From a virus: a DNA stretch of 22,275 nt. The stretch covers positions 1 to 22,275 of the IMG/VR virus record IMGVR_UViG_3300018048_001491. The stretch is one strand, 5' to 3'. Positions within the stretch are counted from its first letter, which is position 1. Each line of letters begins with the position of its first letter. A program made the position numbers and the translations under genes. Below are positions 1 through 21,767 of the stretch, piece after piece. Under the pieces are notes generated by a model. It worked only from the letters and a program-made list of their open reading frames with translations. It ran no database searches and was not told the origin of the DNA.

Positions 1-681
1 TTACTTTCAGGTGAAATAGATTGTGCGATACACAGTGCCAAAGACGTTGGAACGGAAATAGCAGACGGCACAGAACTATTAGGATGTGTCTGGGAGCAAG
101 GTGACAGACGTGATGTGTTGATTGGACCTTTCGAAAATTTTGATTCTATTCCAAGCGGATACAGAATAGGAACAAGTGCTCCACGTAGAGCAAAAATGTT
201 ATCAGACCAAAGACCTGATTTGCGGTTTGTGCCTATAAGAGGAAATATTCAAACAAGAATAGATTTAATTGCTAAACAAGAAGTTGATGGAATCATTATG
301 GCAAAGTGTGCGTTAGATAGATTAAACGTACAAGTACAACACACTGTGATGCCCGAAACAGAATTGTTGCCTGCCGCAGGACAAGGAAAAGTTGTTGTGC
401 AGATAAGAAGCGATGACATCAAAATGAAAGACATATGGAATCCTCAAATATTAGAATGGCCCACGATTGAATTAATGGCAGAACGATATGTTTTAGAATT
501 AGTTAATGGAGATTGTCAAACAGCAATAGGCGTTACCGCAGATGCTAGACCTGAAAAAGGAATGATGCAGATACGTTGTTCTTATCATGACGGAACCAAA
601 GCACACCATATTCAAGAAATTGGAGAACTTGCTAACTGGAAAATGTTAGCACAAAAAGTTGTCCATGCATTTATATCTTAA
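1..681 (+). CDS. hemC: Porphobilinogen deaminase (hydroxymethylbilane synthase), 5'-truncated by window edge
   Basis: The reading frame is open from base 1 to the stop at 679-681, so the start lies outside the window. HemC condenses four porphobilinogen molecules into hydroxymethylbilane in tetrapyrrole synthesis. Seen in the sequence: HSAKD (codons 11-15, the HSxKD motif carrying the catalytic Asp), GTSAPRR (the arginine pair that binds substrate carboxylates), RGNIQTR, LPAAGQG, and NGDCQTAIG, whose Cys is in the place of the residue that carries the dipyrromethane cofactor. All key residues are present, so the enzyme looks functional. About 54 residues follow the Cys, against about 71 in E. 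coli, so the C-terminal domain is shortened. The gene is AT-rich (16 GC of 60 in 241-300), like the phage replication genes. In a T4-like phage this would be an auxiliary metabolic gene; a host segment is unlikely given the phage genes around it. Confidence 0.93.
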   Translation, partial: LLSGEIDCAIHSAKDVGTEIADGTELLGCVWEQGDRRDVLIGPFENFDSIPSGYRIGTSAPRRAKMLSDQRPDLRFVPIRGNIQTRIDLIAKQEVDGIIMAKCALDRLNVQVQHTVMPETELLPAAGQGKVVVQIRSDDIKMKDIWNPQILEWPTIELMAERYVLELVNGDCQTAIGVTADARPEKGMMQIRCSYHDGTKAHHIQEIGELANWKMLAQKVVHAFIS

Positions 682-1610: not shown

Positions 1611-1823
1611 TTGAAATTACTTATCTTGACCTGGTTGATAACAGCAGTATTTTGACTGGTGCTGTTGCACTAACATATAGGCATCTACAGTACCATAAAA
1701 CAGTGTTTTAAAGCGTCATAGACGTCAATACACGGGCCAGTCACAGTGTTGATGTATGTGCGGTTATCAGCATCAAAACCATACCTACAACCTGTTGTTT
1801 TCGCAGTCTATAAATATTTTACA
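1611..1823. other. Divergent intergenic region with hairpins
   Basis: This region separates the minus-strand oxygenase from the plus-strand cassette. It holds AACAGCA (1640-1646) paired with TGCTGTT (1660-1666), a 6-bp TAAAAC/GTTTTA hairpin with a 3-nt loop (1696-1710), and CGTC/GACG (1714-1724). Two TTGAC boxes occur at 1626 and 1652. The second (TTGACT) is 18 bp from TATAGG at 1676, a weak sigma70 candidate for the plus strand. No tRNA-like or coding signal is seen. An in-frame ATG at 1752 could extend the cassette's first gene by 24 codons, but the TATAAATA box at 1809 argues for the later start. Confidence 0.4.
1809..1816 (+). promoter_or_regulatory. T4-type late promoter box TATAAATA
   Basis: This is an exact match to the T4 late promoter -10 element, with no -35 hexamer at the expected distance. 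It ends 7 bp before the ATG at 1824, so transcription from it would begin at or very near the start codon. It is the best candidate promoter for the five-gene cassette 1824-5694. Confidence 0.5.
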
Positions 1824-2450
1824 ATGAATTTCAACATATATCACAGATACATCAAATTACCATTTATTATCAATAAACCAAAATGTTTTGCTGAAGGTTT
1901 AACAGATAATTTTTTGATGTATGTTAATCCGGATGAACTGCCCGACGAATTGTTCAAATGGTTGGCTCAACACAATTTAAAAATATCAAATGTGATTGAA
2001 GGATTTTATACCAAACCCAATGGAGGCGCGATACCTATTCATAACGATACAGTGATACCTCCTGGACAACGAGATGCTTGTAAACTTAATTTTACATGGG
2101 GTCCTGAAACTAGTACCACAAGATGGTGGAAGTTAAAATCTGGTTGCAACTATATAGAAATAAATCACGATGAAACCGAAGTAAACAAAAGTTTTCAAGA
2201 GGCTGGTATAGAACCAGACATTGATTGTTACAAATGTTACAGTGCAGATGAAAACAATATAGAACTGGTTCATCAGGCAGTGATCAATAAGCCAAGCATA
2301 TTAAATGTTGGACAACTACACAACACGCACAATCCAGATCCCACACAACACAGATGGACTTTATCACTAACTCTGTTGAAATTGCCAGGCGAACATCTAA
2401 GTTTTGAAGAAGCATTGTTAAAGTTTAAGGACAGCATAGAACATGAATAA
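1824..2450 (+). CDS. 2OG-Fe(II) oxygenase / aspartyl-hydroxylase-like protein, 208 aa
   Basis: This is the first gene of the cassette. Seen: IPIHNDTV with H73 and D75 as the HxD pair, then ILNVGQLHN with H166 as distal His, then HRWTLSL with R177 as the likely 2-oxoglutarate ligand. This order and spacing fit the non-haem iron dioxygenases. KLNFTWGPETSTTRWW between the motifs has the strand-rich character of the barrel core. Upstream in-frame starts exist (1746, 1752), but the ATG at 1824 directly follows a TATAAATA box and gives a normal domain start. It overlaps the next gene by 8 bp, which suggests translational coupling. It is not closely similar to the oxygenases at 927-1610 or 4079-4630, so it probably acts on a different substrate. 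Confidence 0.72.
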   Translation: MNFNIYHRYIKLPFIINKPKCFAEGLTDNFLMYVNPDELPDELFKWLAQHNLKISNVIEGFYTKPNGGAIPIHNDTVIPPGQRDACKLNFTWGPETSTTRWWKLKSGCNYIEINHDETEVNKSFQEAGIEPDIDCYKCYSADENNIELVHQAVINKPSILNVGQLHNTHNPDPTQHRWTLSLTLLKLPGEHLSFEEALLKFKDSIEHE

Positions 2451-2979
2451 AATTTTCACACTGCGTTGTCCAAAAGAAAAAGGCAAAAATTATTTCAGTT
2501 TAGAAAAGCATCAATACAAAAACAATCTTACTGTGATGATTAACGATGCTGTTGTGTTTGAAAATATTAATGATGCTGAAGAAAATTTACCTTTAACATT
2601 GAGTGATCAAATATTATTCGATTCAGACAGTGTGAACTCAGTGAGTTTAATTTATGATATTTCTTTTGGAGAAATCAAAGAAAAATCCGAAGTGGACTTT
2701 GTGTTTGATAGCAACAGTTCTATATGCACCACAAATTTTAATAGAAAAAATTTTGTACAAGGCAGTGAAAAATTAACTGATCAATACTGTGTAACGCTAA
2801 AGATTAATGATCAAACACACACTCTTGATAAAACATTTCACAAAGGCGAAACTAAAAAGATATCTGTTCAAAATTTTGTGGATATGAGTTTGCCGATCAC
2901 AGTAAGTTTAGAATCCAAAAAACAATTTGAAGATTCCAATGACATCACATACGATCAATTGGAGTTTGAAATACAATAA
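2443..2979 (+). CDS. Unknown beta-rich protein, 178 aa
   Basis: I do not recognise this family. The product is acidic, has no signal peptide or membrane segment, and is dominated by alternating hydrophobic/polar stretches typical of beta strands. Two halves look loosely alike: LTVMINDAVVF near residues 29-39 and VTLKINDQTHTL near 116-127 are each followed by a strand-rich segment, so an internal duplication of a beta-sandwich domain is possible but weak. It overlaps the upstream oxygenase by 8 bp and is 8 bp from the aminotransferase, so it belongs to the operon. It is AT-rich (16 GC of 60 in 2701-2760), unlike the next three genes. It could be an accessory, carrier or substrate protein, or a virion protein; the sequence does not decide. 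Confidence 0.7.
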   Translation: MNKIFTLRCPKEKGKNYFSLEKHQYKNNLTVMINDAVVFENINDAEENLPLTLSDQILFDSDSVNSVSLIYDISFGEIKEKSEVDFVFDSNSSICTTNFNRKNFVQGSEKLTDQYCVTLKINDQTHTLDKTFHKGETKKISVQNFVDMSLPITVSLESKKQFEDSNDITYDQLEFEIQ

Positions 2980-2987
2980 TTAAGATT

Positions 2988-4082
2988 ATGAAATCAATTA
3001 AAGGACTCATACCAGGTGTACAAAGATTGACCACAGTTGCCAAACCTCATTGGCAGTACGGTTACATGGACAACAGTAAGAAGATAATAGATCCATTGTT
3101 GCACTATGGTTGTTTCACATTGGGGTTTGACCGACATGACATATTGGATTATGTGTATGACAATATTCGAGTGAAACCAGAAATAGCAGAAAGCATTGTG
3201 CAGAATGAAGAACTGTATCTCAATGAACCCAGTTATCAATTGTCCGACACTCTGTTTCACATGACAGGCTACAAAAGTATATTTGCTCTCAGTGGATCAG
3301 ATGCCAACGAAGGTGCGGTCAAACTTGCCAGTGCTTATCAAAAACTGCTAGGACAAACACAACGCACAAAAATTGTGTGTTTTGAAAACAGTTATCACGG
3401 CTCTACATTTTTAAACTACAACATGGGAGACAGTCTGTTTACCGATCCTTTCTACACTTTAAAACCTTATGACCAAGTGATCCGACTGAAAAGAGATTTT
3501 GATATCAATCAAACAGAGTGGAATCAAGTGATGTGTGTGATGGTGGAAACGTGTTCATATGGTGAACAATTGAGACCCAACTCAAAAGAATTCTGGAACA
3601 AGATAAAACAGTTGCAGGAGCAGGGTGTGGTTGTGATTGTGGACGACATTTTTATTGGCGGCGGAAAGACAGGCACATTTGTTGGGTGGCAACAAACTCC
3701 CATTCAGCCAGACATATTCACCATGGGCAAAGCAATCACAGGTGGATTTTTTCCGCTCAGCATCACCATGTACAACTCAAAGATTGATGATGTGTTGCCA
3801 GATGATTTTGATTGGGAACACGGGTTCACATACAATTACAGTCTGCCTGGCATATTGAGTTGTATTAAATATATTGATATACTGCATCAGGAACAATTGA
3901 TGACACAACATCACAACATTGTGGCAACAGCAAAAGCAACGTTTGAACAAGCAGGCTATACCATAGTGGGACAGTTTGGTACACTATTTGATTTGATCAA
4001 AGGCGATGATCATAAATTTTTTATCATACCCATCAATGCCACAGAAGAATATTTTGATGTGTTGAAAGGACAGTTACAATGA
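2988..4082 (+). CDS. Class III PLP-dependent aminotransferase, 364 aa
   Basis: The fold type I class III signature is clear: SGSDANEGA (102-110, phosphate and cofactor contacts), SYHGST (135-140), IVDDIFIGGGKTG (217-229, the D-E-x-x-x-G-x-G-R-T-G motif with DD in place of DE), and FTMGKAITGG, where K248 is the Schiff-base lysine. These enzymes move an amino group from an amino acid to an aldehyde or ketone; family members include the ornithine, DAPA, glutamate-semialdehyde (HemL) and cyclitol aminotransferases. At 364 residues it is shorter than the usual 420-450, mainly at the C-terminal domain. HemL was considered because of hemC nearby, but the SGSDANEGA segment is closer to the other branches. 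It overlaps the next oxygenase by 4 bp (ATGA). The downstream amidinotransferase suggests it supplies the amine that becomes guanidinylated; that is inference. Confidence 0.88.
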   Translation: MKSIKGLIPGVQRLTTVAKPHWQYGYMDNSKKIIDPLLHYGCFTLGFDRHDILDYVYDNIRVKPEIAESIVQNEELYLNEPSYQLSDTLFHMTGYKSIFALSGSDANEGAVKLASAYQKLLGQTQRTKIVCFENSYHGSTFLNYNMGDSLFTDPFYTLKPYDQVIRLKRDFDINQTEWNQVMCVMVETCSYGEQLRPNSKEFWNKIKQLQEQGVVVIVDDIFIGGGKTGTFVGWQQTPIQPDIFTMGKAITGGFFPLSITMYNSKIDDVLPDDFDWEHGFTYNYSLPGILSCIKYIDILHQEQLMTQHHNIVATAKATFEQAGYTIVGQFGTLFDLIKGDDHKFFIIPINATEEYFDVLKGQLQ

Positions 4083-4630
4083 TCATAAAAGATAATTTTT
4101 TGACATCAGAGCAATTGGTTCAAATCAATCAGATGATTGATGCAGATATCACACAGCACAATGGACGTTTTGAAAGATACGATGATGAAGTGGATCATCA
4201 CGAAACAGACGATTGTAATCTGTTCTATCTCAACAAAGAAATAAAAGATTTCTTTTTTGGCTTGTTGGTGGAAAAAGGTTACTTCACAGAGGAATTGCTC
4301 ACAGGGCACGATCAAACACTGCGATATCATGAAATGAAATATCCTTATGTGAGCACATGGCACAAGGACAGATTTCTTGATTGGGAAAAAGAAGAAATAG
4401 ATTTTATGGGAGTGACATTTTTCTTAAATGAAACGTGGGACTTTAAGGATGGCGGATTGTTTTTGTTCCGCAAGGATGATGCAGACAGAGGCGAATATGT
4501 GGAACCCATCGGCAATAGAATCATAATCAACAACGAAGATCTGTATCATGCTGTGACAAAAATTGTGACGCCAGATGTGAAACGACGCAGTCTACAGGCT
4601 TTTATGCACGTGAAATATTTGAACATATGA
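4079..4630 (+). CDS. 2OG-Fe(II) oxygenase, 183 aa
   Basis: This is a compact single-domain non-haem iron dioxygenase. Seen: STWHKDRF with H95 and D97, GVTFFLNETWDFKDGG (the barrel strand and GG turn typical of prolyl-4-hydroxylase-like proteins), DLYHAVTKI with distal H157, and RRSLQAF with R169 or R170 to bind 2-oxoglutarate. All expected metal and cosubstrate residues are present. It overlaps both neighbours by 4 bp through ATGA stop/start codons, so the aminotransferase, this oxygenase and the amidinotransferase are probably made in fixed ratio from one message. It likely hydroxylates the pathway intermediate or the amino-acid donor; the substrate is unknown. Confidence 0.85.
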   Translation: MIIKDNFLTSEQLVQINQMIDADITQHNGRFERYDDEVDHHETDDCNLFYLNKEIKDFFFGLLVEKGYFTEELLTGHDQTLRYHEMKYPYVSTWHKDRFLDWEKEEIDFMGVTFFLNETWDFKDGGLFLFRKDDADRGEYVEPIGNRIIINNEDLYHAVTKIVTPDVKRRSLQAFMHVKYLNI

Positions 4631-5694
4631 TATACACAGAATACGATCCGTTGGAATCAATCATAGTGGGAGACACATACGATCCCGGACAGGTTCACGT
4701 GTTGCATCATAAGGATCCCAGCAAGTTCAATCGTATCCTGGAAGAAACCAAACGAGATCTGGACAATCTAGCAGACTTTTTAAAGAAAGGTGGCGTTGAA
4801 GTGATGCGTCCCACTGTGCATGAGTACTATGATCCCATACATATGCCTGATTTTGATGTGGAATTTCCCATTGCTCCCATAGTGCCCAGAGATGCACTGA
4901 TGGTGATGGGTCGCACAATCATACAGACATACACCAGTTACACCGACAGATACTTTGATGCTGTGAGTTATTATCCCATATTTGAAAAGATGTTTCGTGA
5001 AGGCTATCGTTGGATCAGCCAACCCCCGCCCGTGTTACAGAATTTAAACACTGAAGATGATTGGTTTGTGAATGATAGAACCTACAAGGACAAATTAATG
5101 GACAGAGTGTTGTGGCACACAGCCACCATGTTTCGAGCAGGAGATGCCTTCATTGTGAATCCAGAAGGTCCTGGCTCAGCAACAGGATTGGAATGGTGCC
5201 GCAGAGAGTTGCCGGAGTACAGATTTATTCCCAACACAGGCACACGTTTTAACGGCTTTGGACACATTGACCACGGCTTTATCATGATAGATGATGACAC
5301 TGTGATACACGCAGGCATGGATTGGGTACCAGACTGCTTACGCAACAAACATCTGATTGATGTGAGTGACTGTTTGCCTGAATTGAAAATGGATAGATTT
5401 GTGCAGGATTATGCAGAAGCCAAAAATAGAATGGACATTGCTTGGGTCAACAAGTACTTGGAGAATTGGAGAGGTTACAATCAAGAAGTGTGCTTTGATC
5501 TCAATGTGTTGGTGATAGACAGAAACAACATTGTGTTTGCACGACACATACCCAAACTGTTTGCAAAACTGAAGTCCTTACACATAGACTGTCACGTTGT
5601 GCCACAGAGACACTATTTGTTTTGGGACGGTGGAATACATTGTAGCACACTTGATGTCAAAAGACGAGGCGTCAAAAGACAGATCATAGATTAA
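4627..5694 (+). CDS. Amidinotransferase (glycine/inosamine amidinotransferase family), 355 aa
   Basis: The start EYDPLESIIVGD matches the opening of AGAT/StrB-type amidinotransferases, which move the amidino group of arginine to an acceptor amine. The triad can be placed as D173 (AGDAFIV), H213 (FGHIDHG) and the nucleophile C339 (WDGGIHCSTLDVKRRG), in the order and rough spacing of the family. The length of 355 is close to StrB1 and shorter than human AGAT (423). Arginine deiminases and peptidyl-arginine deiminases share the fold, but the N-terminal motif and the GGIHCSTLDV context favour the amidinotransferases. It is the last gene of the cassette, joined by a 4-bp overlap to the oxygenase, and is followed by a hairpin pair. 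It is GC-richer than most of the window (30 GC of 60 in 5101-5160), which hints at transfer. Confidence 0.9.
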   Translation: MIYTEYDPLESIIVGDTYDPGQVHVLHHKDPSKFNRILEETKRDLDNLADFLKKGGVEVMRPTVHEYYDPIHMPDFDVEFPIAPIVPRDALMVMGRTIIQTYTSYTDRYFDAVSYYPIFEKMFREGYRWISQPPPVLQNLNTEDDWFVNDRTYKDKLMDRVLWHTATMFRAGDAFIVNPEGPGSATGLEWCRRELPEYRFIPNTGTRFNGFGHIDHGFIMIDDDTVIHAGMDWVPDCLRNKHLIDVSDCLPELKMDRFVQDYAEAKNRMDIAWVNKYLENWRGYNQEVCFDLNVLVIDRNNIVFARHIPKLFAKLKSLHIDCHVVPQRHYLFWDGGIHCSTLDVKRRGVKRQIID

Positions 5695-5780: not shown

Positions 5781-6419
5781 CTAGGCTTTCTTTTGATGGA
5801 TGTAGTTGCTATCTTTTGAAAAATCGATATGTTGGTTTCTTATTGCTATGTTAGACAAGAATAAATCTTTGTTGATCATAAATTTACTTTGCTCTGTCTT
5901 TTGAAATGCATAGTAAACACAACCTCCTGTTGTGTATCTTTTATTGATGAATTTGTAATTGCTTTCTTTTATTAGTGTTTCAAAAAACTTTTCGCTATAA
6001 TAATAGTGACAGTGTTTTGCGAATATTTTTTCTTTATCTCTTTTGTTTACTTCTGGAACTCCGTGTATCATTATACCATTTGTTTTACAGCAATGATCTG
6101 CTATTTTAAAACAAGTGTACTGTGCATCAAACGGTTCAACGTGTTCTGATGTACCCATGTTGTACACAACATCGTATTGCTCTTTCCAATCCACAAATTG
6201 ATCAAATACAGAAAGATCTTTTACAATTGATCCGTGCTTACCATTTACATCAACAGAAGTGTGTATGAATCCTCTAGTTTGCCAATATTCTTTTGCTGGA
6301 TTTAATTTAGGACGAATTATTTGATCACCAAGTTCCAGCATTTTCAAATCTTTACAACTGTTGTGAACTTTTAAAATATCTTCTTCTATATCTTGTAGTA
6401 TGTATAATTTTAGTCCCAT
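5781..6419 (-). CDS. Class I SAM-dependent methyltransferase-like protein, 212 aa
   Basis: Seen: KMLELGDQ near residues 26-33 as SAM-binding motif I (normally hhExGxG), a following acidic residue in HTSVDVNG (D58), and YDVVYNMGTSEHVEP, which resembles the post-II region of Methyltransf_11/23-type enzymes. GIMIHGVPEV fits the strand 5 region. Motif I is degenerate (GD instead of GxG), so the assignment rests on overall layout. There is no DPPY or NPPY motif, so an adenine or N4-cytosine DNA methylase is not indicated; a sugar or small-molecule methyltransferase is more likely, in keeping with the glycosyltransferase-like gene 24 bp upstream. TATAAAAC about 17 bp before the start is a weak late-promoter-like box. 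Confidence 0.62.
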   Translation of the reverse strand: MGLKLYILQDIEEDILKVHNSCKDLKMLELGDQIIRPKLNPAKEYWQTRGFIHTSVDVNGKHGSIVKDLSVFDQFVDWKEQYDVVYNMGTSEHVEPFDAQYTCFKIADHCCKTNGIMIHGVPEVNKRDKEKIFAKHCHYYYSEKFFETLIKESNYKFINKRYTTGGCVYYAFQKTEQSKFMINKDLFLSNIAIRNQHIDFSKDSNYIHQKKA

Positions 6420-6443: not shown

Positions 6444-7283
6444 TTAATTAATTTTAGTAATATTGATTCCGTAGTATTTGCTGATAGTGTCCCAAGCAAC
6501 ACCTGTGATTAATTCACCAGAATTAAATTGTAAATTAGTTAAACAATTGAATAGATACTGTCTATTATCAGGATAATATAGATTATTAATTTTTGAAATT
6601 GAATCCACACTGTAATCTTTTAAACAACCAGGCACTAATGATATAATTGGACAGCCTTCTCTCAATGCTTCAGTCATTGCCATAGTGTGCAAACTGACCA
6701 CACAGTGTATATTTTCTAATGAATCACAGAATCCTCTTGAACCTCTTGCTTTCTTAGGCAGTTTTTTCCTCACTTTGATTGGTCTATTTGTGTATTTTTT
6801 GATTTCTTCTGTTGTTGATTCTATCCATTGATCCACAGTTTGTTTTATACCATACACATCTAAACCATTTTGGCTAGGCGCCACAATGTACACTTGATCT
6901 CCCATTTGCCAAGGTTTAATTTTCATATTGAATTTTACAAAACGTTCGTTAGTCCATTCACCTTTGATGTCTGTGATTTGATTTTCGTTGAATGTCACTC
7001 TCCAATAAACAGGTTTCCACCAATTGCAGTAACCTTTTTCAACGTTGAGATAATCTATATTTTGCTCTTGAAATGTTTCATGGTATTTTTTAAATCCATC
7101 GTGTCCACCAACTCCACCTAATACTACCAAGTCCCCTTGGACAATTGATTCCACATCGGTGAAAATATTCAATCCTGTTCTAGCACTTATAGTATTTGCC
7201 AACTGATGACAAGTACGCCTGCTGGTTCCTAAATCTAAACCTTTTGGAATTACTATTCTTTTGTATTGTTTATTCATCGCCAT
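6444..7283 (-). CDS. GT-B-like glycosyltransferase / capsule-synthesis-like protein, 279 aa
   Basis: This is a divergent member of the family also encoded at 18367, 20026 and 20970. The shared pattern is a strand plus Ser/Gln loop (VYIVAPSQNG), a helix W-x3-T-x2-E-I-K-K-Y-T-x-R with a following I-x-V-R strand, a V-V-S-L-H-T loop and E-A-L-R-E-G-C-P. This is the second-domain layout of GT-B proteins such as KpsS/LipB-type capsule proteins, where the Ser/His loop and E-x6-G-x-P contact the nucleotide sugar. The start is uncertain between ATG 7283 and ATG 7277; both overlap the helicase stop at 7270. It follows the helicase gene in the same operon. Donor and acceptor are unknown; phage DNA, virion or host glycan are all possible. 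Confidence 0.55.
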   Translation of the reverse strand: MAMNKQYKRIVIPKGLDLGTSRRTCHQLANTISARTGLNIFTDVESIVQGDLVVLGGVGGHDGFKKYHETFQEQNIDYLNVEKGYCNWWKPVYWRVTFNENQITDIKGEWTNERFVKFNMKIKPWQMGDQVYIVAPSQNGLDVYGIKQTVDQWIESTTEEIKKYTNRPIKVRKKLPKKARGSRGFCDSLENIHCVVSLHTMAMTEALREGCPIISLVPGCLKDYSVDSISKINNLYYPDNRQYLFNCLTNLQFNSGELITGVAWDTISKYYGINITKIN

Positions 7284-8715
7284 CAAGGTTCTTTAAGAAG
7301 TCCCTTAATTTTGTTTGATCAGTATTACCTGAATCAATTCTACTTACTGTATCACCTTTGGTAGGATCAGGTAATTTAAGTTCAGTTGTGTTTTTTTCTG
7401 CACTATCATTAACTGTAGATGTCTTTTTTAATGAATTATAAATTGTGCTTGACCCTTTATAATCTTGACTGTCTGAGTCTTCTGCTAGATCTCTTATTCT
7501 TAAACTGTCCACATCAAATTCTAAATCAATCTTTTGACCAACACCACTGGATGATCTTGTTTTCATTAACTGTATTTGATATCTGCCTCTTTCTCTCATT
7601 GCTCTTGATGTGAATATACCAAACACGTTGTCAGCAGTTTGTATTTTACTTAAACCTCCAGATATATGCGAATGATCAAACTCAATTTCTTCTACTGCTC
7701 CTCTATTCAACTGCGATGCTGTAACAAAGATTACATTCAATTCCATTGATAAATTTCTTAATTCTTCTGAAACAAATTTGTCCTTCACAAATAAATCACT
7801 TGGAGAAACTTTTCTACTGATTGGCATCATAAGATCCAAATAGTCTACCAGTATTACATCTAATTTTTTACCTGTTTTAATTTCATATTCTTTGATGTAA
7901 CTTCTTAAGTCGTTTGCATTTTTACCACTTGCCATGTATTTGATTTGAAATCTACCTGCTTTTTTGCCTAACAGTTTAACTTTCATTTCAACACCATCTA
8001 AATCTTTAAAAATTTCTCTTGCTGGAATATCAGTTAACATTGAATCCAATCTCATACTCACTAGTGCTTCACTCAATTCAAAAGTAATATACGCCACATT
8101 CAATCCATTCAATACCCAATTGCAACCTAAGTTTGCCAAGAACAACGATTTACCTGCTCCAGAACCACCTGCAAATATATTCAATTCACCTTTGTTAAAT
8201 CCACCAAATAATTTCTTATCTAGTGTTGCCCAGCCTGTGCTGACCTGTCCATTAGAATTTTTTAGTCCCATAAGTCTTGCTTTTGGATCATCGAAATAAT
8301 CTGTACCTATATCTTTGTGTAATCCAATCTGTACTGCCTTCTTGACCAATTCTTCAACTGGACCATATTCACCTTTTTCCAACATATCTGCTGATTTTAA
8401 AATTGCTCTTTCTAAACTTTTGTGTCTAACAAATGTTTCAAAATCATCAAGCAACCAAGTAAAATGTTCTTCAGTTAGATTTTCTGTTGGCTTCAAATCA
8501 ACATTACAACTCTTGTTCACAATGTCATATGTTGGCAATGAATTGTATTGTGACACATACTTGTTCACAAAGTCTGCTGTGTCTTGTAACTTTCTATCAA
8601 ATAAAGAATAATCAAATATAGATTGGCAACGCACAAATGTTTCTGCGTCACTCAGCATCATTTCGAGATACAGTTTTTGTATCTCATATCCATAGTCTTT
8701 GTTCTGTTTAACCAT
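7270..8715 (-). CDS. 41: Replicative DNA helicase, T4 gp41 / DnaB family, 481 aa
   Basis: This is the hexameric 5'-3' helicase that unwinds DNA ahead of the replisome and works with the gp61 primase. Seen: an N-terminal helical domain (about 1-110), a linker, then the RecA-like core with Walker A GGSGAGKS (183-190), DVILVDYLDL as Walker B, and FVTASQLNRG, the DnaB sensor-type motif. Length is close to T4 gp41 (475). ATG 8715 was chosen over an upstream in-frame start at 8781, because AAGGA lies 2 nt before it and a consensus sigma70 promoter ends 7 bp upstream; the longer form would begin inside that promoter. It overlaps the carbamoyltransferase stop by 8 bp. The C-terminal 60 residues are polar and low in complexity. 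Confidence 0.93.
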   Translation of the reverse strand: MVKQNKDYGYEIQKLYLEMMLSDAETFVRCQSIFDYSLFDRKLQDTADFVNKYVSQYNSLPTYDIVNKSCNVDLKPTENLTEEHFTWLLDDFETFVRHKSLERAILKSADMLEKGEYGPVEELVKKAVQIGLHKDIGTDYFDDPKARLMGLKNSNGQVSTGWATLDKKLFGGFNKGELNIFAGGSGAGKSLFLANLGCNWVLNGLNVAYITFELSEALVSMRLDSMLTDIPAREIFKDLDGVEMKVKLLGKKAGRFQIKYMASGKNANDLRSYIKEYEIKTGKKLDVILVDYLDLMMPISRKVSPSDLFVKDKFVSEELRNLSMELNVIFVTASQLNRGAVEEIEFDHSHISGGLSKIQTADNVFGIFTSRAMRERGRYQIQLMKTRSSSGVGQKIDLEFDVDSLRIRDLAEDSDSQDYKGSSTIYNSLKKTSTVNDSAEKNTTELKLPDPTKGDTVSRIDSGNTDQTKLRDFLKNLDGDE

Positions 8716-9706
8716 TGTCCTTATTATACCACATTTTGTCTGAATTGTCAATGTGCTTGTTGTATTTGGCACACACAGCACCTATGCATGAACCAGGATC
8801 GCCAGGATTTTTTGGAACCCATATGTCATCCCAAACCGATGCCAGTTTGATTCTAGCAGTCTTGTTCAATGCACAACCTCCTACCAAAACAATGTTATTA
8901 GTAGGAATATTCATTTGAATCCACGAACTGGCACACATCAACACTTGTTCAAAAATGTGTTGTGTGGTTGCCGCCAAATCTGCTGTATCCTGTTCCGAAT
9001 TTAATTCTGGTCTCCACCAATTACATCCTCGGTGTAGATTAACTCTTGTCTTGAAAGGCATTCTGGTTTTGATAATTTCTTCCATCATGATTCTATGATA
9101 TTTTCGCCAGTTGCCTTTTTGTGCCAATTGTTCCAGTTTGTACTCTTCTGCATTGGCTTTGAATCCACATCGTTGAGTCATGGCTGAATAAAATAAACCA
9201 ATACTGTGTGGGTATCTTTGTGTGTATTTCTTTTCTAATTGATCTCCTTGTCCGTGCCAAATTGTGTATGTTTCAAACTCACCAATTGAATCTAGCACAA
9301 CAACTGCCGCGTTGTTGTATGGAGATGTGTAATAACCATATGCCGCATGGCTCATATGATGATCTATATATTCAACAGGAACATGGATACCTTGACGCTG
9401 TAAAAATTTCTTCACGTCATTTTCTTTAAATTTTAATCCTTGTCCTGCCAACAGTTGACGCATACTCTTCTTAAAAGGTTTTTCATACCAAATTATTTTT
9501 GCCGGGTGAGCCCATCTAGGATTTGATCTCACGTGTGCTAACATTTCTGGACACAGGTTAGGATCACCAGGTATGCCACTGAAGTCTGAACTCTTACCAG
9601 CCCAATGAACATACAATCCATATCTGTCTGTTAAACCTTTTACATGATATTCCATCACAGCCAGACTGGCATCGTGATTATTTCCTGTTATTCCCCAAAC
9701 TATCAT
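8708..9706 (-). CDS. Carbamoyltransferase, NodU/TobZ family, Kae1-like domain only, 332 aa
   Basis: Seen: GNNHDASLAV (8-17, ATP-fold start), HHMSH (116-120) whose H116 and H120 form the iron-binding HxxxH, VVVLDSIGEFETYT (136-148), LVGGCALN, and NPGDPGSCIGAV, whose D303 is the third metal ligand. These mark the Kae1-like domain that passes the carbamoyl group to a hydroxyl. Full-length family members (about 550-600 aa) continue with a YrdC-like domain that makes carbamoyl-adenylate; here the protein stops about 29 residues after D303, so that domain is missing and no other YrdC-like gene is seen in the window. Phage relatives have been linked to carbamoylation of 5-hydroxymethylcytosine in DNA, to the best of my recall. 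AGGA 9 nt before the ATG supports the start. Confidence 0.88.
   Translation of the reverse strand: MIVWGITGNNHDASLAVMEYHVKGLTDRYGLYVHWAGKSSDFSGIPGDPNLCPEMLAHVRSNPRWAHPAKIIWYEKPFKKSMRQLLAGQGLKFKENDVKKFLQRQGIHVPVEYIDHHMSHAAYGYYTSPYNNAAVVVLDSIGEFETYTIWHGQGDQLEKKYTQRYPHSIGLFYSAMTQRCGFKANAEEYKLEQLAQKGNWRKYHRIMMEEIIKTRMPFKTRVNLHRGCNWWRPELNSEQDTADLAATTQHIFEQVLMCASSWIQMNIPTNNIVLVGGCALNKTARIKLASVWDDIWVPKNPGDPGSCIGAVCAKYNKHIDNSDKMWYNKDNG
8723..8751 (-). promoter_or_regulatory. Perfect consensus sigma70 promoter before gp41
   Basis: On the minus strand TTGACA (8751-8746) is followed after exactly 17 bp by TATAAT (8728-8723). The helicase ATG begins 7 bp after the -10 box, so the predicted transcript start coincides with the start codon. 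The promoter lies inside the 3' end of the carbamoyltransferase gene. Confidence 0.85.
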
Positions 9707-14790: not shown

Positions 14791-15609
14791 TTAATTTCCT
14801 TCCTGATAAGAATATTTTGTGTTAGACGTATTGTAGTAAAAATAGTGTGTGCCTGTTTTGGGTAGTTGTAATACAGTATCGATTGGAAGATAAATTCCTG
14901 ATGTAAAAGACGTTCCTACATCAGTTTCATATCCGTGTATGTGCCAAGGATTATCTACACTGATGATGGGTGTGTTGGTAGCATATGCTATAAATTTTGT
15001 ACAAGCATCATGAAATTCATCATGTATTTTTTTAACCTGAGGTCCTTGATCTTTTTGAGTATTGCTTGAGTGTATTATTAGATCGACGTTTTTTTCTTTC
15101 AACTTTTTGGCTAGATTGTCTCCGCCTGAATAATAATTACCCACCAGATCATTACATATTAACGCACCAACTTTGATTGTTTCGTGTTCTGTGACAAGTT
15201 CTACAACGGGAAATTCATTCCGCTTTTCACAATCTTGATCAAATGATACCAGTTTTGTTTTGAATGTTGATCCAATGTGCTCTCCTTTTTTATTATAGAA
15301 ACGCAATTGATTTGTTTTTTTTCCAAAAAATGGACCATTGATTGTTTCTTTATCGTCCAACCATAGCGTTCCAATAATTAAACCAAGGTTCTTTGAAGAT
15401 GCAAAACTTACTAGTTTTTCCATTGCCTGTTCTGTTTCTTTACAAGTATTGATATTAAAACTAGGAGCATCATAACCACTCAATGATGCTTCTGGTGTAA
15501 ACAGATAATCAACTTTATTTTCTACTGCCCATTCGCAGGCTTTTAAAATTTCGTTGTAGTTGTCTTGAACGTTTCTACTTACTGGTATTTGTGCACCTGC
15601 TATTTTCAT
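14791..15609 (-). CDS. Carbon-nitrogen hydrolase (nitrilase superfamily), 272 aa
   Basis: The Glu-Lys-Cys triad is visible: E40 in LFTPEASLSGY, K117 in TFKTKLVSF and C152 in GALICNDLVGN. Length fits a single-domain member. These enzymes hydrolyse amides, nitriles or N-carbamoyl groups, or serve as glutaminase domains of NAD synthetase. Substrate-side loops are not diagnostic; N-carbamoylputrescine-type amidase, an omega-amidase, or a partner for NAD metabolism are all open. The start is ATG 15609, sharing ATGA with the UvsW stop; an in-frame TTG at 15618 would lengthen the overlap and is less likely. A metabolic hydrolase inserted between uvsW and core unknowns of the replication operon is unusual. 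Confidence 0.85.
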   Translation of the reverse strand: MKIAGAQIPVSRNVQDNYNEILKACEWAVENKVDYLFTPEASLSGYDAPSFNINTCKETEQAMEKLVSFASSKNLGLIIGTLWLDDKETINGPFFGKKTNQLRFYNKKGEHIGSTFKTKLVSFDQDCEKRNEFPVVELVTEHETIKVGALICNDLVGNYYSGGDNLAKKLKEKNVDLIIHSSNTQKDQGPQVKKIHDEFHDACTKFIAYATNTPIISVDNPWHIHGYETDVGTSFTSGIYLPIDTVLQLPKTGTHYFYYNTSNTKYSYQEGN

Positions 15610-17063
15610 TTTGTCCAATCCACTTTCTCTATTGTAAAAGGATAATTTGCTTCTTTGTAAAATTTTTTTCTGTGTGTTAAATGTCTTTTAGCAAATTTAC
15701 AACTTGAAGTTAAATCCCATATCTGTACAAAGTCTTTGTCTTTGGCTTTACGTATTCCTCTGCCGATTGATTGAATTACTCTTACAAATGATTTGCCTGG
15801 CTCAATCAATACAAGATTGAATATTCTAGGAATATTAATTCCCACACTGGCTACACCGTACGTGGCAATAATTACTTTATTAGTACTGCTAGATATTTCG
15901 TCATACTGTTCTTTACGATCTGCTAATTTGGTTTCTCCTTGAATAAACACACTGTCATCTATGATTTCTAATAATTTTTTACCTGCTGTAAGTCTATCAA
16001 TTAATACCAATGTGTTACCGCTTGATTTTATTTTGTTTACAAGTTTACCTAAATACTCAATTCTTTTTTCGTCTGTAACTAAAAACTTTAATTCTTCTTG
16101 ATAATTTTTATACACGTTGGTATCTACCAATTGTACAACATTTACATGACATTTAGATAGCACTCCTTTGTCTTGTAATTCTTTTGCTGATATTTGATTA
16201 ACAACTGGACCAATGCTGGCTAAGATGCTTTGAAATTCAAATTGTTCTTTGGGCACAGTTCCAGTTAGACCCCAACGAACAGGGGAATTTTTTAAATGAT
16301 GTGTGAGTAATTTTTTTAAAACTTCTGCTTTTGCTTGGTGCACTTCATCTATTATAACAGTTTTTACTCCGTCTAAAAACTCTGCTAAACTAAAAACAGA
16401 TTCTCCTGCTTTAGATTTTTTATCTAATACATTAAGACTTTGCCATGTACAAATAGTGTGTGTTCGATTTAATTCTTTTCTATCTCCAAAATAAACTCCA
16501 ACATCTAATCCTACGTTGATGTAATCTTCTTCTGTTTGTGTAACTAATCCTTTGTTAGGCACAATAACCAATGTTCTTCCAAACTTTTCACATATGCTAC
16601 TCAATGCCGCAGTGATAATTGTTTTACCAGCACCTGTGGCAACTTCTTGTAAACTTTGTGGCTCCTTGATAAAATTATTAATCACGTCCACTTGGTAGTC
16701 ACGTAATTCGATTTTTTGTCCTTCGCATTGATGTCCTTTGGGCCACGTTTTATTTCCGAAAAAGTTTTTGTCTACTTTACTAAAAGTTAGATCAAATTTT
16801 TCTCTTTTGTCTACGACTTCTTCGATTTCTACACCTGCTTCATTGAGATATTGAATGATCTTGTCCAGATGATTGACATAACCATTACCACCTAGACCAA
16901 AGAAACCAACTGTACCGTCCCAACGTCCTAGTTTATATTGAGGAAGATATCTAGCATAAGGCACTTGAAATTTAAATTTGTTTGCTATTTTTCTTCGCAC
17001 TTCAACAGGCAGTCCTTCAATTTTTACATTGACTTCGTCGCTTATAATAATTTTACATCTCAT
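15606..17063 (-). CDS. uvsW: UvsW-like SF2 DNA helicase, 485 aa
   Basis: Recombination helicase that unwinds R-loops and branched DNA and supports the switch to recombination-dependent replication in T4. Seen: an N-terminal DNA-binding domain with PYARYLPQYKLGRWDGTVGFF (about 35-56), motif I ATGAGKT (142-148), motif II DEVH (239-242), GLTGTV as motif III-like, and motif VI SIGRGIRK (432-439). Length matches T4 UvsW (503). ATG 17063 is preferred over an in-frame start at 17096, since it shares ATGA with the upstream stop and begins with the domain. It overlaps the nitrilase-family gene by 4 bp. No promoter is seen directly ahead, so it depends on the promoter at 18350-18378. Confidence 0.92.
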   Translation of the reverse strand: MRCKIIISDEVNVKIEGLPVEVRRKIANKFKFQVPYARYLPQYKLGRWDGTVGFFGLGGNGYVNHLDKIIQYLNEAGVEIEEVVDKREKFDLTFSKVDKNFFGNKTWPKGHQCEGQKIELRDYQVDVINNFIKEPQSLQEVATGAGKTIITAALSSICEKFGRTLVIVPNKGLVTQTEEDYINVGLDVGVYFGDRKELNRTHTICTWQSLNVLDKKSKAGESVFSLAEFLDGVKTVIIDEVHQAKAEVLKKLLTHHLKNSPVRWGLTGTVPKEQFEFQSILASIGPVVNQISAKELQDKGVLSKCHVNVVQLVDTNVYKNYQEELKFLVTDEKRIEYLGKLVNKIKSSGNTLVLIDRLTAGKKLLEIIDDSVFIQGETKLADRKEQYDEISSSTNKVIIATYGVASVGINIPRIFNLVLIEPGKSFVRVIQSIGRGIRKAKDKDFVQIWDLTSSCKFAKRHLTHRKKFYKEANYPFTIEKVDWTK

Positions 17064-18349: not shown

Positions 18350-18378
18350 AGTATAACGGATTTTGGTTAAAAAGTCAA
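18350..18378 (-). promoter_or_regulatory. Near-consensus sigma70 promoter heading the UvsW operon
   Basis: On the minus strand TTGACT (18378-18373), 17 bp, TATACT (18355-18350), then TGTGAA and the ATG at 18343. It has the same 17-bp spacer and very short gap to the start codon as the promoters before gp41 and gp61. It overlaps the last codons of the upstream glycosyltransferase-like gene. Confidence 0.8.
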
Positions 18379-19203
18379 TCTAGAAAAAGGTATACCTTGT
18401 GCTATTTCTTCTGTAGTCCACTCAGTATGAACATAATCATTCAGCCATTGCTGTCTATCAGGGGTCTTTGGGCTGTTAATGGTGCTGAAATCGTGATTGG
18501 CAACGTCATATGCTAGACTTTGTTCTCCTACAAATGCAGGGATTCCATTCAGTACAGCGTGTATGCCTGGATTACTGCTCCAACTTACAACGGCCCAAGC
18601 ATTAGAAAAATTTAAATCAAAATCATCATATGTGTTATCAATCTGTTTTGGAATTTCATAAACAACATTATCCAATCTCAGTTGAGCTGGTAATATGCAT
18701 CTAGGATGCGATCGTACAATTATTTTTCGATCAGTGTGCTGTCGTAAACGTTGAACAGTTTCTAATACATATTGTTCTAATGGTGGCATATTTTTCCACT
18801 GTTCACTTTTGTCGTGTTGTAAGCACAACAATATATGTTCTCCTTGAGTGCGCCAAGGTCTTATGTCTAATCCTAATTGTGCAACTCTTGTGTCATCATT
18901 ATTTTTAGGACCAAAGTCTGCCAGTCTATTAATGCCGTTGATACCAACTTTCCAAGTTGAATTTCTTTTGATACCGCCCACTTCTATAACTAAAACTTTT
19001 TTATTTTGTGATCTAAATTTGTCCCAAACAATTTTATTTTTTATCATCCTGCCATGCCACAATAATGACCATATCACAGGAATATCTGTGTCTATATTGT
19101 TTTCGTCTACAGTGTGTCCCAACTTCAACAGTCCTAATTTCACAGCGTCCCACACAGGAGGACTGTTTAAAGAACCGTAATCTGTAAACAAACTAAACTT
19201 CAT
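18367..19203 (-). CDS. GT-B-like glycosyltransferase / capsule-synthesis-like protein, 278 aa
   Basis: Member of the four-copy family. Seen: HILLCLQHDKSEQW (nucleotide-domain strand and loop), YVLETVQRLRQHTDRKIIVRSHPR, AWAVVSWSSNPGIHAVLNGIPAFVG, and a C-terminal W-L-N-D-Y-V-H-T-E-W-T-x-E-E-I-A-Q-G. The S-W-S-S loop before A-V-L-x-G-I-P is the classical donor-site arrangement of KpsS/KpsC and related GT-B proteins. The N-terminal half (MKFSLFTDYGSLNSPP) starts like the first Rossmann domain. It overlaps the GT-A gene upstream by 11 bp. It is likely cytoplasmic, with no signal peptide. Confidence 0.65.
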   Translation of the reverse strand: MKFSLFTDYGSLNSPPVWDAVKLGLLKLGHTVDENNIDTDIPVIWSLLWHGRMIKNKIVWDKFRSQNKKVLVIEVGGIKRNSTWKVGINGINRLADFGPKNNDDTRVAQLGLDIRPWRTQGEHILLCLQHDKSEQWKNMPPLEQYVLETVQRLRQHTDRKIIVRSHPRCILPAQLRLDNVVYEIPKQIDNTYDDFDLNFSNAWAVVSWSSNPGIHAVLNGIPAFVGEQSLAYDVANHDFSTINSPKTPDRQQWLNDYVHTEWTTEEIAQGIPFSRLTF

Positions 19204-20029
19204 TCCAATATGTCTCTGATCTATTTGAGATCAAATCTTTCTTTTGACTTTTGCCTTGATTTTTTCTAGCACCTTTCATATGATCAAACCATTTTCCTAA
19301 AACTGAATTAATCAGCGGATGTCCACCTCCACCTGTTTTTGCTGTTTGATTAAAAATACTTTCAGCATAATCCAAATAATTTTTATCGATAGGTGTGAGT
19401 TTATTCAGTACATCTCCAAAGACATAACTGTCGTGCCATTCAATCAATTTGAATATACCGTTGTCTGCGTCTTCGTACATACGTTCAAATTCTTTTAAAA
19501 ACTTTTTGCAGGTTTCATTTTTAATATTCAATCCGTAAAATCCACATTCAGGCCAAGTCTGTGATCCTTTACCTCTGCCTACAAATGTTATCCATTTATC
19601 ATTGGGTAATAAATTTTGAAATTGATCATATGAAATAGCAGAGTGTACATAGGTATCTCCATCCATCCATACAGTCCATCCATCTTCTGTTCGATTTACA
19701 GCATCAAACACAGCATATACTTTGTTGGCAAATCTTACAGCGTCCCATTTAAATTCTTTGTGATGATCTCTTGGACGTTTTTCCGGAAAAGGACATTTAC
19801 CATTTGCTTTAGGTACATTCCCCCAACGTGCTTTAAATTGATTAAGTTTGATTAATTCTTTTGCATCAATAATTTCAATTTGAGATGAATCCGGATTTAC
19901 TGGTGAACAATTTTCTGCATACACCAGTAATTTAATTTGTTTATCCACATTACGAGCAAAACTATCTAAGAATCTTTGCCCATATAAATCTAATCCAGGT
20001 TTATGAAATGTTGTTAATACTTTAATCAT
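19193..20029 (-). CDS. GT-A-type glycosyltransferase, 278 aa
   Basis: The key motif is WTVWMDGDTYVHS with D123-G-D125, the DxD that binds the metal and sugar nucleotide in GT-A enzymes. The start MIKVLTTFHKPGLDLYGQRFLDSF and the later CGFYGLNIKNE and EWHDSYVFGDVL fit a GT8-like or related single-domain fold. The start is ATG 20029, which shares ATGA with the upstream stop; an in-frame codon at 20056 would overlap by 31 bp. The C-terminus is Lys-rich (RKNQGKSQKKD). It is encoded between two GT-B-like paralogues, suggesting a joint pathway. Acceptor unknown. Confidence 0.75.
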   Translation of the reverse strand: MIKVLTTFHKPGLDLYGQRFLDSFARNVDKQIKLLVYAENCSPVNPDSSQIEIIDAKELIKLNQFKARWGNVPKANGKCPFPEKRPRDHHKEFKWDAVRFANKVYAVFDAVNRTEDGWTVWMDGDTYVHSAISYDQFQNLLPNDKWITFVGRGKGSQTWPECGFYGLNIKNETCKKFLKEFERMYEDADNGIFKLIEWHDSYVFGDVLNKLTPIDKNYLDYAESIFNQTAKTGGGGHPLINSVLGKWFDHMKGARKNQGKSQKKDLISNRSETYWNEV

Positions 20030-20973
20030 TTTACATATTTTTTTAGGTGTTGCCAAGCCAAGCCCGATTTTACTTCATCCAATGTCCAGTGTATTTGTGC
20101 TATTCGTCTAATCCAAAGTTCTCTATCAAATTCTTTTGGATTTTCAAGGTCTTCCCACTTTTCTAAATTGACTCCTTTAATCTGAGCTCTATCTGGATCT
20201 GTTACCAGTGTTGGTATTCCTTCTATTACTGATGCCACAGTAGGACTAGAGTTATGACCTACAACTGCTTGAGCGTGAACAAATTCATCACGCAAGTCCT
20301 TGGCCCCACTTATAACAATATTGGTATATTGTGGTTGTCCAGAGTTAATCCATTGACGCACAAGCGATTTCCATTGAACAGACATTTTATCACCGGGATG
20401 AAATCTTATTCTAATTTCTTTTTTAGTAAATTTTCTTATTTCTTGTATTGTGTGTTGTAGCCATACGTTTACTTTTAAACCACCCATACTCCAACCACCG
20501 TCTCTTTGACAGCAAACTAAAATGTATTTGCCACCACCCAATCTCCATGGTTTTAAATCTATACCTAAATCTTTTTTGATTAATTCCCAACGCAATGGGT
20601 CTGGGTTATCATAACAATATTCTGCTGTATTAGGAAATATTCCATCATAACCATAACGTAGATAATTTTTAGATTGTGTTGGATCAGCATACAAAAACAA
20701 ACTACTGTCAACAATCATTGTGCGTTTGTTTCTTTTTTGTTGCTCTTCGTACACACTTTTACGCAACATGAGATGTCTATGCTTTTGTGGTTGTTGGTGT
20801 ACAAATCCTTGTAACACTGCTATATCGCTAGGAACTATTGTCCAACCATTACTGATTATCCCTCTATCTCCACATCTATTAACACCTTCAATAAAATTTT
20901 TAATAATCAAAGGCTTTTGTAATTTTTTATTTCCAGGAGGAATAACTTTCATATATCCAACAACACTTATCAT
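20026..20973 (-). CDS. GT-B-like glycosyltransferase / capsule-synthesis-like protein, 315 aa
   Basis: The largest of the four paralogues. Seen: KYILVCCQRDGGWSMGG, WLQHTIQEIRKFTKKEIRIRFHPG, AQAVVGHNSSPTVASVIEGIPTLVT and a C-terminal WIRRIAQIHWTLDEVKSG. The H-N-S-S loop and G-I-P match the GT-B donor site. It overlaps both neighbours by 4 bp (ATGA), so it belongs to a strictly coupled operon. The N-terminal domain (MISVVGYMKVIPPGNKK) differs clearly from its paralogues, as expected if acceptor sites have diverged. Confidence 0.66.
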   Translation of the reverse strand: MISVVGYMKVIPPGNKKLQKPLIIKNFIEGVNRCGDRGIISNGWTIVPSDIAVLQGFVHQQPQKHRHLMLRKSVYEEQQKRNKRTMIVDSSLFLYADPTQSKNYLRYGYDGIFPNTAEYCYDNPDPLRWELIKKDLGIDLKPWRLGGGKYILVCCQRDGGWSMGGLKVNVWLQHTIQEIRKFTKKEIRIRFHPGDKMSVQWKSLVRQWINSGQPQYTNIVISGAKDLRDEFVHAQAVVGHNSSPTVASVIEGIPTLVTDPDRAQIKGVNLEKWEDLENPKEFDRELWIRRIAQIHWTLDEVKSGLAWQHLKKYVK

Positions 20974-21767
20974 AATAGTCCGTGTGCCTCCATAATTCTT
21001 ACTGCTTCACCTGTGCCTAATTCTTTAATGTGGTATTGACAATAAGCCAACCAGTGTTGCCATTTTTCAACCTGATGTTTAGATGGATAAAATGGTGATT
21101 CAATTTTACTTAAATCTTGTGAAGTTACAGAATCAGCCGCTGTCTTCTGCATGGTAAAAGCAGGTACTCCTACACAAACACTTTCTATCGCCGCAATTGA
21201 TTGATAGGTCACTGTGGCATAAATTTTTTCTTTAATAAGATACCAAGGAACACTGCCAGCACCAACTCTTTCATGGCGTTTGCCTTTATCTCTAATAATA
21301 ATTTCTCTATCTGTATATTTTTTTAATTCTGCAACAGTATTCTCCACCCATTGATTTCTGTCAATATTATAAAATTTACAAGGCTTTTCGCTCGGAGTAA
21401 CCAGTAATATTTTTCCTTTGTGATTCTTTCTCCAGTCAACAAATTCTAATTCTGGACTAGTTCTTTTAATTTTTTGCCAACGATCATCAGGCACATTAAA
21501 AACTATGCTATGTTGTACGTCATTCTTTACTACTCTGTGATACAATTTCTTTTTGATTAAATTTCCCACATAACCTGTGTCTATATAATAAAATGTTCGA
21601 CCAGATTTTTTACAATCGTTTATAATTTTTCTTTTGGCTAAACTTCTAAAACTTACTGTGTTTTCTATCGGTAGTTTTTTGATTGCTTCGTAAGGAAGAT
21701 GATGACAGCCTAGGCCTCTAACCCAGTGTTGTAGTATTTCATCTTGTTTGTCAAAAGCATAGTGCAT
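20970..21767 (-). CDS. GT-B-like glycosyltransferase / capsule-synthesis-like protein, 265 aa
   Basis: Paralogue with KILLVTPSEKPCKFYNI, WVENTVAELKKYTDREIIIRDKGKR, ATVTYQSIAAIESVCVGVPAFTM and a final WLAYCQYHIKELGTGEA. It is closest in its second domain to the gene at 6444-7283 (both have a P-S loop and K-K-Y-T-x-R). The start at 21767 lies 1 bp after the upstream glycosyltransferase stop. The nucleotide-sugar site looks intact by motif, although the usual S-S is replaced by Q-S. Function in glycan, DNA or virion modification is inferred from the cluster. Confidence 0.63.
   Translation of the reverse strand: MHYAFDKQDEILQHWVRGLGCHHLPYEAIKKLPIENTVSFRSLAKRKIINDCKKSGRTFYYIDTGYVGNLIKKKLYHRVVKNDVQHSIVFNVPDDRWQKIKRTSPELEFVDWRKNHKGKILLVTPSEKPCKFYNIDRNQWVENTVAELKKYTDREIIIRDKGKRHERVGAGSVPWYLIKEKIYATVTYQSIAAIESVCVGVPAFTMQKTAADSVTSQDLSKIESPFYPSKHQVEKWQHWLAYCQYHIKELGTGEAVRIMEAHGLL

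What the first reader, a model, noticed from the sequence alone, without database searches (positions are those of the whole stretch)
1824..5694. Five-gene aminotransferase-oxygenase-amidinotransferase cassette in a T4-like phage
Seen: five plus-strand genes with 8-bp or 4-bp overlaps (one 8-bp gap), encoding 2OG oxygenase, unknown protein, class III aminotransferase, 2OG oxygenase and an AGAT/StrB-like amidinotransferase, with catalytic residues in place (K248; H95/D97/H157; D173/H213/C339). Known: in streptomycin-type pathways an aminotransferase makes an amine that an amidinotransferase turns into a guanidine, and 2OG oxygenases hydroxylate arginine-like compounds. Inference: the phage makes a guanidino small molecule or a guanidino modification of a nucleotide, protein or glycan. 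I do not know of a described phage pathway of this composition.
Basis: partly seen in the sequence, partly recalled or inferred. Interest (0 to 1): 0.85.

Follow-up and report, generated by a model that had tools for sequence, protein, structure and literature searches.

The report
Swappable phage guanidine-making gene cassette
A family of aquatic phages carries a late-expressed, part-exchangeable block of enzymes that looks built to make and hydroxylate an unknown guanidine-bearing compound, and its amidinotransferase-like enzyme consistently has a histidine where all cellular relatives checked have a catalytic aspartate.

Summary
The five genes are real, intact and under purifying selection. 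They are a conserved unit: the aminotransferase (AT) lies just upstream of the amidinotransferase-like gene (AGAT) in 40 of 40 related loci where the contig reaches that far, and the exact five-gene order survives down to about 50% AT identity in other phages. At least four architectures exist. All pair the AGAT with one to several 2-oxoglutarate (2OG) oxygenases. Two also carry an AdoMet-decarboxylase-like gene, a family shown elsewhere to act as ornithine/arginine decarboxylases in phages. (2) The upstream half (oxygenases plus AT) is swapped between phages whose helicases are 94-99% identical, behind a conserved late-promoter box (TATAAATA). Best reading: a late, modular tailoring operon making a hydroxylated guanidino product, for a virion glycan/protein or as a small metabolite. 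Acceptor and product are unknown. The streptomycin analogy is weak; the closest fold is the polyamine amidinotransferase HsvA. A thymidylate-synthase-type DNA-modification route has no support.

The parts
1809..1816 (+). TATAAATA late-promoter-like box in front of the operon
   Evidence: only TATAAATA in the window (about 2 expected by chance, so the single hit alone is not significant); conserved before the cassette in architecture A and B loci; NATAAATA is enriched upstream of this phage's gene starts, 11 of 15 plus-strand sites in 4.4% of positions, many of them virion genes
1824..2450 (+). G1: putative Fe(II)/2OG oxygenase; start at 1824 rather than the in-frame GTG at 1746
   Evidence: no Pfam hit alone; invariant H73xD75...H166...R177 in 15 homologues; conserved start in homologues
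2443..2979 (+). G2: two-domain all-beta protein of unknown role
   Evidence: AlphaFold2 pLDDT 90.6, pTM 0.86; no PDB or viral fold match at E<=1e-3; found in architecture A only
2988..4082 (+). AT: class III PLP aminotransferase; the C-terminal part of the Pfam profile is not matched
   Evidence: PF00202 E 3.9e-36, profile matched only to 328 of 403; K248 and D219 invariant in 16 homologues
4079..4630 (+). G4: Fe(II)/2OG oxygenase
   Evidence: PF13640 E 2.4e-6; H95, D97, H157 and R169 invariant in 14 homologues
4627..5694 (+). AGAT-like pentein, putative arginine-dependent amidinotransferase with His164 in place of the catalytic Asp
   Evidence: phmmer to HsvA, StrB1, AGAT, SxtG; model pLDDT 82.8, best folds HsvA, AGAT, SxtG, StrB1; D89, H213, D215 and C339 invariant; His164
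5781..6419 (-). downstream convergent gene, methyltransferase-like by eye; membership in the pathway doubtful
   Evidence: found in only 3 loci; not confirmed by Pfam
6444..7286 (-). downstream convergent gene, glycosyltransferase-like by eye; membership doubtful, part of the phage backbone
   Evidence: no Pfam hit; conserved next to gp41-like helicase

Best explanation
The cassette is a late-transcribed, modular tailoring operon of a T4-related aquatic phage. Proposed order of events: one or two Fe(II)/2OG oxygenases hydroxylate or oxidise a precursor; the class III aminotransferase installs or rearranges an amine; the pentein moves an amidino group from arginine through Cys339 to that amine, giving a guanidine and ornithine. 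The product is a hydroxylated guanidino group, either on a late phage structure (virion-associated glycan or protein) or as a free metabolite tied to arginine/ornithine/polyamine metabolism. Phages exchange the oxygenase+AT half while keeping promoter and AGAT, so the chemistry is diversified. Shown here: gene content, conserved linkage, intact oxygenase and PLP motifs, AGAT fold, His-for-Asp change, late-type promoter box, module exchange. Inferred: reaction order, donor, acceptor, product and purpose.
For: AT-AGAT adjacency in 40/40 loci. Scanning with the AT instead of the AGAT: 48 of 80 AT loci have AGAT next door, most in the exact five-gene order. 2OG oxygenases of several subfamilies accompany every AT-AGAT architecture. 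AGAT profile and fold match only amidinotransferases at the top, hydrolases far behind. SpeD-like gene next to AGAT in two architectures; phage SpeD homologues are ornithine/arginine decarboxylases (PMC9992855). Late promoter box. Exchange on a nearly identical backbone and a recombination scar. Purifying selection. The 84-kb relative carries many glycosyltransferase-, heptose- and carbamoyltransferase-type genes by reading its ORFs.
Against: No substrate or product evidence. The catalytic Asp is replaced by His, so amidinotransfer is not assured. The AT lacks the usual C-terminal part, so its donor is unclear. The AT also lives without AGAT in other phages. No SpeD gene in the window's own lineage. 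The glycan genes sit mostly elsewhere in the genome, so a link to them is circumstantial.
Confidence: 0.55

Rival explanations
1. Free small-molecule route only: the cassette is an offshoot of arginine/polyamine metabolism that makes a hydroxylated guanidino-amine (polyamine-like), used for DNA charge neutralisation, translation or competition, and nothing on the virion is modified.
For: Closest fold is HsvA, a polyamine amidinotransferase; SpeD-like decarboxylase adjacent in several phages with phage homologues acting on ornithine/arginine (PMC9992855); a CN-hydrolase gene in the window.
Against: No SpeD in the window lineage; late-type promoter box rather than early; several oxygenases are more than polyamine synthesis needs.
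Confidence: 0.3
2. DNA hypermodification: the guanidino group ends up on a nucleobase and protects phage DNA from nucleases; the module exchange reflects an arms race with restriction systems.
For: The cassette sits beside helicase-primase genes; AT relatives sit between uvsW- and gp47-type genes; phages are known to carry hypermodified bases.
Against: No thymidylate-synthase-family gene in 21 records; QueC in 1 of 20; late-type promoter. Records are fragments, so absence is weak.
Confidence: 0.1
3. The pentein is not an amidinotransferase: His164 makes it a hydrolase, a transferase of another kind, or a binding protein.
For: His replaces the catalytic Asp in the whole close clade and the main distant phage clade.
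Against: Cys339, His213, Asp215 and Asp89 are invariant; top fold hits are all amidinotransferases, hydrolases weaker by about 14 orders of magnitude; purifying selection.
Confidence: 0.2
4. Unrelated auxiliary genes that happen to share a hot spot for gene acquisition.
For: The locus does exchange genes; AT and AGAT both occur without the other in some phages.
Against: Exact gene order, overlaps and pairing kept across several genomic contexts.
Confidence: 0.05

Closest known systems
HsvA of Erwinia amylovora (polyamine amidinotransferase, PDB 5wpi)
   Same: Best sequence and fold match of the AGAT-like protein; Cys, His and guanidine-binding Asp residues kept
   Different: About 22-25% identity; His164 replaces the catalytic Asp; different neighbouring genes
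StrB1 (streptomycin) and human AGAT (creatine)
   Same: Pentein amidinotransferase fold and Cys/His residues
   Different: Asp179/Asp254 replaced by His; no cyclitol-pathway genes seen in the window
Radical SAM + glycine amidinotransferase module of Campylobacter phages CP220/CPt10 (PMC2853527)
   Same: Phage-borne, amidinotransferase-containing, interchangeable between related phages
   Different: Radical SAM enzymes instead of 2OG oxygenases; no class III AT annotated in the stretch; its AGAT keeps Asp
Virus-encoded polyamine pathways (PMC9992855)
   Same: Phage SpeD homologues that decarboxylate ornithine/arginine; such a gene flanks AGAT in sister architectures
   Different: That paper does not mention amidinotransferases; SpeD not found in the window lineage
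Synechococcus phage S-SCSM2R amidinotransferase region
   Same: Amidinotransferase beside 2OG oxygenases
   Different: 25% identity; sits with KdsA/KdsB and glycosyltransferases; no class III AT annotated

Membership tests
Arginine-dependent amidinotransferase (AGAT/StrB1/HsvA) | pentein fold closest to amidinotransferases | tested here: met
Arginine-dependent amidinotransferase (AGAT/StrB1/HsvA) | nucleophilic Cys and His (Cys407/His303) | tested here: met
   C339 and H213 invariant
Arginine-dependent amidinotransferase (AGAT/StrB1/HsvA) | triad Asp (Asp254) | tested here: not met
   His164; Asp in 29/29 cellular relatives; triad from PMC3684758
Arginine-dependent amidinotransferase (AGAT/StrB1/HsvA) | amidino transfer activity | not testable with these tools
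   needs enzyme assay
Class III aminotransferase (PF00202) | fold-type I signature with PLP Lys and Asp | tested here: met
   K248, D219 invariant
Class III aminotransferase (PF00202) | complete C-terminal domain | tested here: inconclusive
   profile matched to 328 of 403 only; the last 40 residues are too divergent to align
Class III aminotransferase (PF00202) | a named subfamily (BioA, ArgD etc.) above curated cut-off | tested here: not met
   best 117 bits against cut-off 405
Fe(II)/2OG oxygenase (G1, G4) | HxD...H iron triad and distal Arg | tested here: met
Streptomycin-type guanidinocyclitol pathway | cyclitol-specific aminotransferase and kinase genes beside amidinotransferase | tested here: not met
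   AT is class III; no kinase in the cassette
Campylobacter-phage-type rSAM/AGAT module | radical SAM genes beside AGAT | tested here: not met
   none in the window cassette; present in distant relatives L060-L081

The most novel reading that the evidence does not exclude
A previously undescribed, widespread phage biosynthetic system in which an amidinotransferase with a His-His-Cys active site and a swappable set of 2OG oxygenases produces variable guanidino decorations of the virion late in infection, diversified under antagonistic selection.
Probability: 0.25. Interest if true: 0.88.

Novelty: new variant of a known kind. Interest (0 to 1): 0.68.

Why it matters
It would show that aquatic phages carry their own multi-step guanidine chemistry, exchanged in parts much like serotype loci, and would give a natural pentein whose catalytic Asp has been replaced by His. 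The linkage, the altered residue and the promoter make it directly testable with one operon in E. coli and one enzyme assay.

Tried and rejected
D173 as the catalytic Asp: rejected. Streptomycin-like cyclitol route: no supporting genes. Heme-route idea (hemC nearby and class III AT, hence HemL): HemL is not among the best NCBIfam hits and AT homologues without hemC exist. DUF6875-like protein as a heme guanidine N-oxygenase: no PDB match, left open. DNA modification through thymidylate-synthase-type or QueC genes: not found or only once, weak because records are fragments. G2 fold search gave no significant match. No model coordinates were available, so the distance His164-His213-Cys339 could not be measured. 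Searching isolated phages with the AT found only bacterial-type aminotransferases below 31% identity.

Full report
OBSERVATION. The window is a whole 22,275-base virus record, itself a fragment.

ACTIVE SITES. G1 family: H73xD75, H166, R177 invariant. G4 family: H95, D97, H157, R169 invariant. AT: K248 and D219 invariant, but the C-terminal part of the Pfam profile is not matched and no NCBIfam subfamily reaches its cut-off, so donor and acceptor cannot be named. AGAT-like protein: D89, H213, D215, C339 invariant over 20 phage sequences. The published human triad is Asp254-His303-Cys407 (PMC3684758). In ungapped alignment to AGAT, StrB1 and HsvA the Asp254 position is His164. It is His in the close phage clade and in the main distant phage clade, Asp in a few other phage paralogues and in CP220, and Asp in 29 of 29 sampled cellular relatives. 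The substitution is therefore conserved, not decay. dN/dS is about 0.02-0.17.

FOLD. The AGAT model (pLDDT 82.8, pTM 0.87) matches HsvA, human AGAT, SxtG and StrB1 at about 1e-24; arginine-type hydrolases follow at 1e-10. G2 is modelled at pLDDT 90.6 as an all-beta protein, which I read as two domains, without a significant match.

CONSERVED LINKAGE. 289 viral places encode a relative of the AGAT-like protein; 80 were kept. In every locus of at least about 55% identity whose contig reaches far enough upstream, 40 by my count, AT lies just upstream, next to AGAT or with G4 between. These loci are not all independent. Scanning with the AT gave 80 loci: 48 with AGAT nearby, most in the order G1-G2-AT-G4-AGAT, down to about 50% AT identity. 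Of the 32 without it, the large majority form one lineage where a DUF6445 (2OG-like) gene overlaps the AT start and a gp47-like gene follows; a few have G1-radical SAM-beta protein-AT; L197 lacks AGAT after G4. So AT+oxygenase is the wider core and AGAT an addition.

ARCHITECTURES. A: G1-G2-AT-G4-AGAT. B: three 2OG oxygenases-AT-AGAT. C: G1-AT-AGAT with SpeD-like/DUF6875-like genes. D: SpeD-like-DUF6875-like-AGAT-three oxygenases, with an AT elsewhere in the record. SpeD-like genes occur in 10 of 30 records, none of the window lineage. Phage SpeD homologues have been shown to be ornithine or arginine decarboxylases (PMC9992855). More distant AGAT-like proteins (about 30%) sit in radical-SAM-rich regions of large phages, often in two or three copies. 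In Campylobacter phages an amidinotransferase/radical SAM block was described as an interchangeable module (PMC2853527).

EXCHANGE. L010 and L017 share helicase (94%), primase (96%) and AGAT (91%), but their ATs are 63% identical and their oxygenase sets differ. L013 and L015 have 99% helicase and primase, 93% AGAT, 70% AT. L027/L028 hold a small ORF joining the start of a G4 gene to the end of a different AT, followed by a different G4: a recombination scar. Similarity between A and B loci falls away just after the promoter box.

EXPRESSION. TATAAATA at 1809-1816 is the only copy in the window; about two would be expected by chance, so the single match proves nothing. It is, however, kept in front of the cassette in both A and B loci (CATAAATA in three of them). 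In the 84-kb relative with an identical cassette, NATAAATA lies within 60 bases upstream of gene starts in 11 of 15 plus-strand cases, 4.4% of positions being upstream, many of them virion genes. This supports late transcription. The short distance to the ATG would give a nearly leaderless message in the window (inference from T4 late promoters).

BEST READING. A late, modular tailoring operon making a hydroxylated guanidino group, with acceptor unknown. Late timing and the large set of glycan-type genes (read by eye) favour a virion glycan or protein; HsvA likeness and SpeD neighbours favour a small amine. DNA modification has no positive evidence, though absence in fragments is weak.

TAXONOMY. 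Terminase and helicase are closest, at about 52%, to jumbo Pseudomonas phages of the PA5oct kind, so 'T4-like' holds only broadly; the host is unknown.

Noticed in passing
window 115-681 (+); longer in L002 5195-6055: A hydroxymethylbilane synthase (hemC) homologue in the phage, conserved beside the cassette in the window lineage.
   Followed up: partly
L027 9208-9471, L028 8051-8314: Chimeric ORF: start of a 2OG oxygenase gene joined to the end of an aminotransferase gene; a recombination scar.
   Followed up: yes
L040 5544-6359, L051 6855-7652, L059 10517-11314: SpeD-like decarboxylase fused to a DUF6875-like domain near AGAT.
   Followed up: partly
L060-L081: Large phages with arrays of radical SAM/SPASM genes, two or three amidinotransferase paralogues, a class I/II aminotransferase-like gene and a nucleosidase.
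   Followed up: partly
window 14791-15618 (-): Carbon-nitrogen hydrolase (nitrilase superfamily) gene in the phage; possible amidase of arginine/polyamine metabolism.
   Followed up: no
window 8708-9706 (-) and L084 8830-10659: Two carbamoyltransferase-like genes; the first is confirmed by Pfam, the second read by eye.
   Followed up: no
window 6444-7286, 18367-19203, 20026-20973, 20970-21767 (-): Several genes that look like paralogues of one uncharacterised glycosyltransferase-like family, with no Pfam hit.
   Followed up: no
L191-L230: Aminotransferase relatives placed between a DUF6445 2OG-like gene and a gp47-like gene in T4-type phages.
   Followed up: partly
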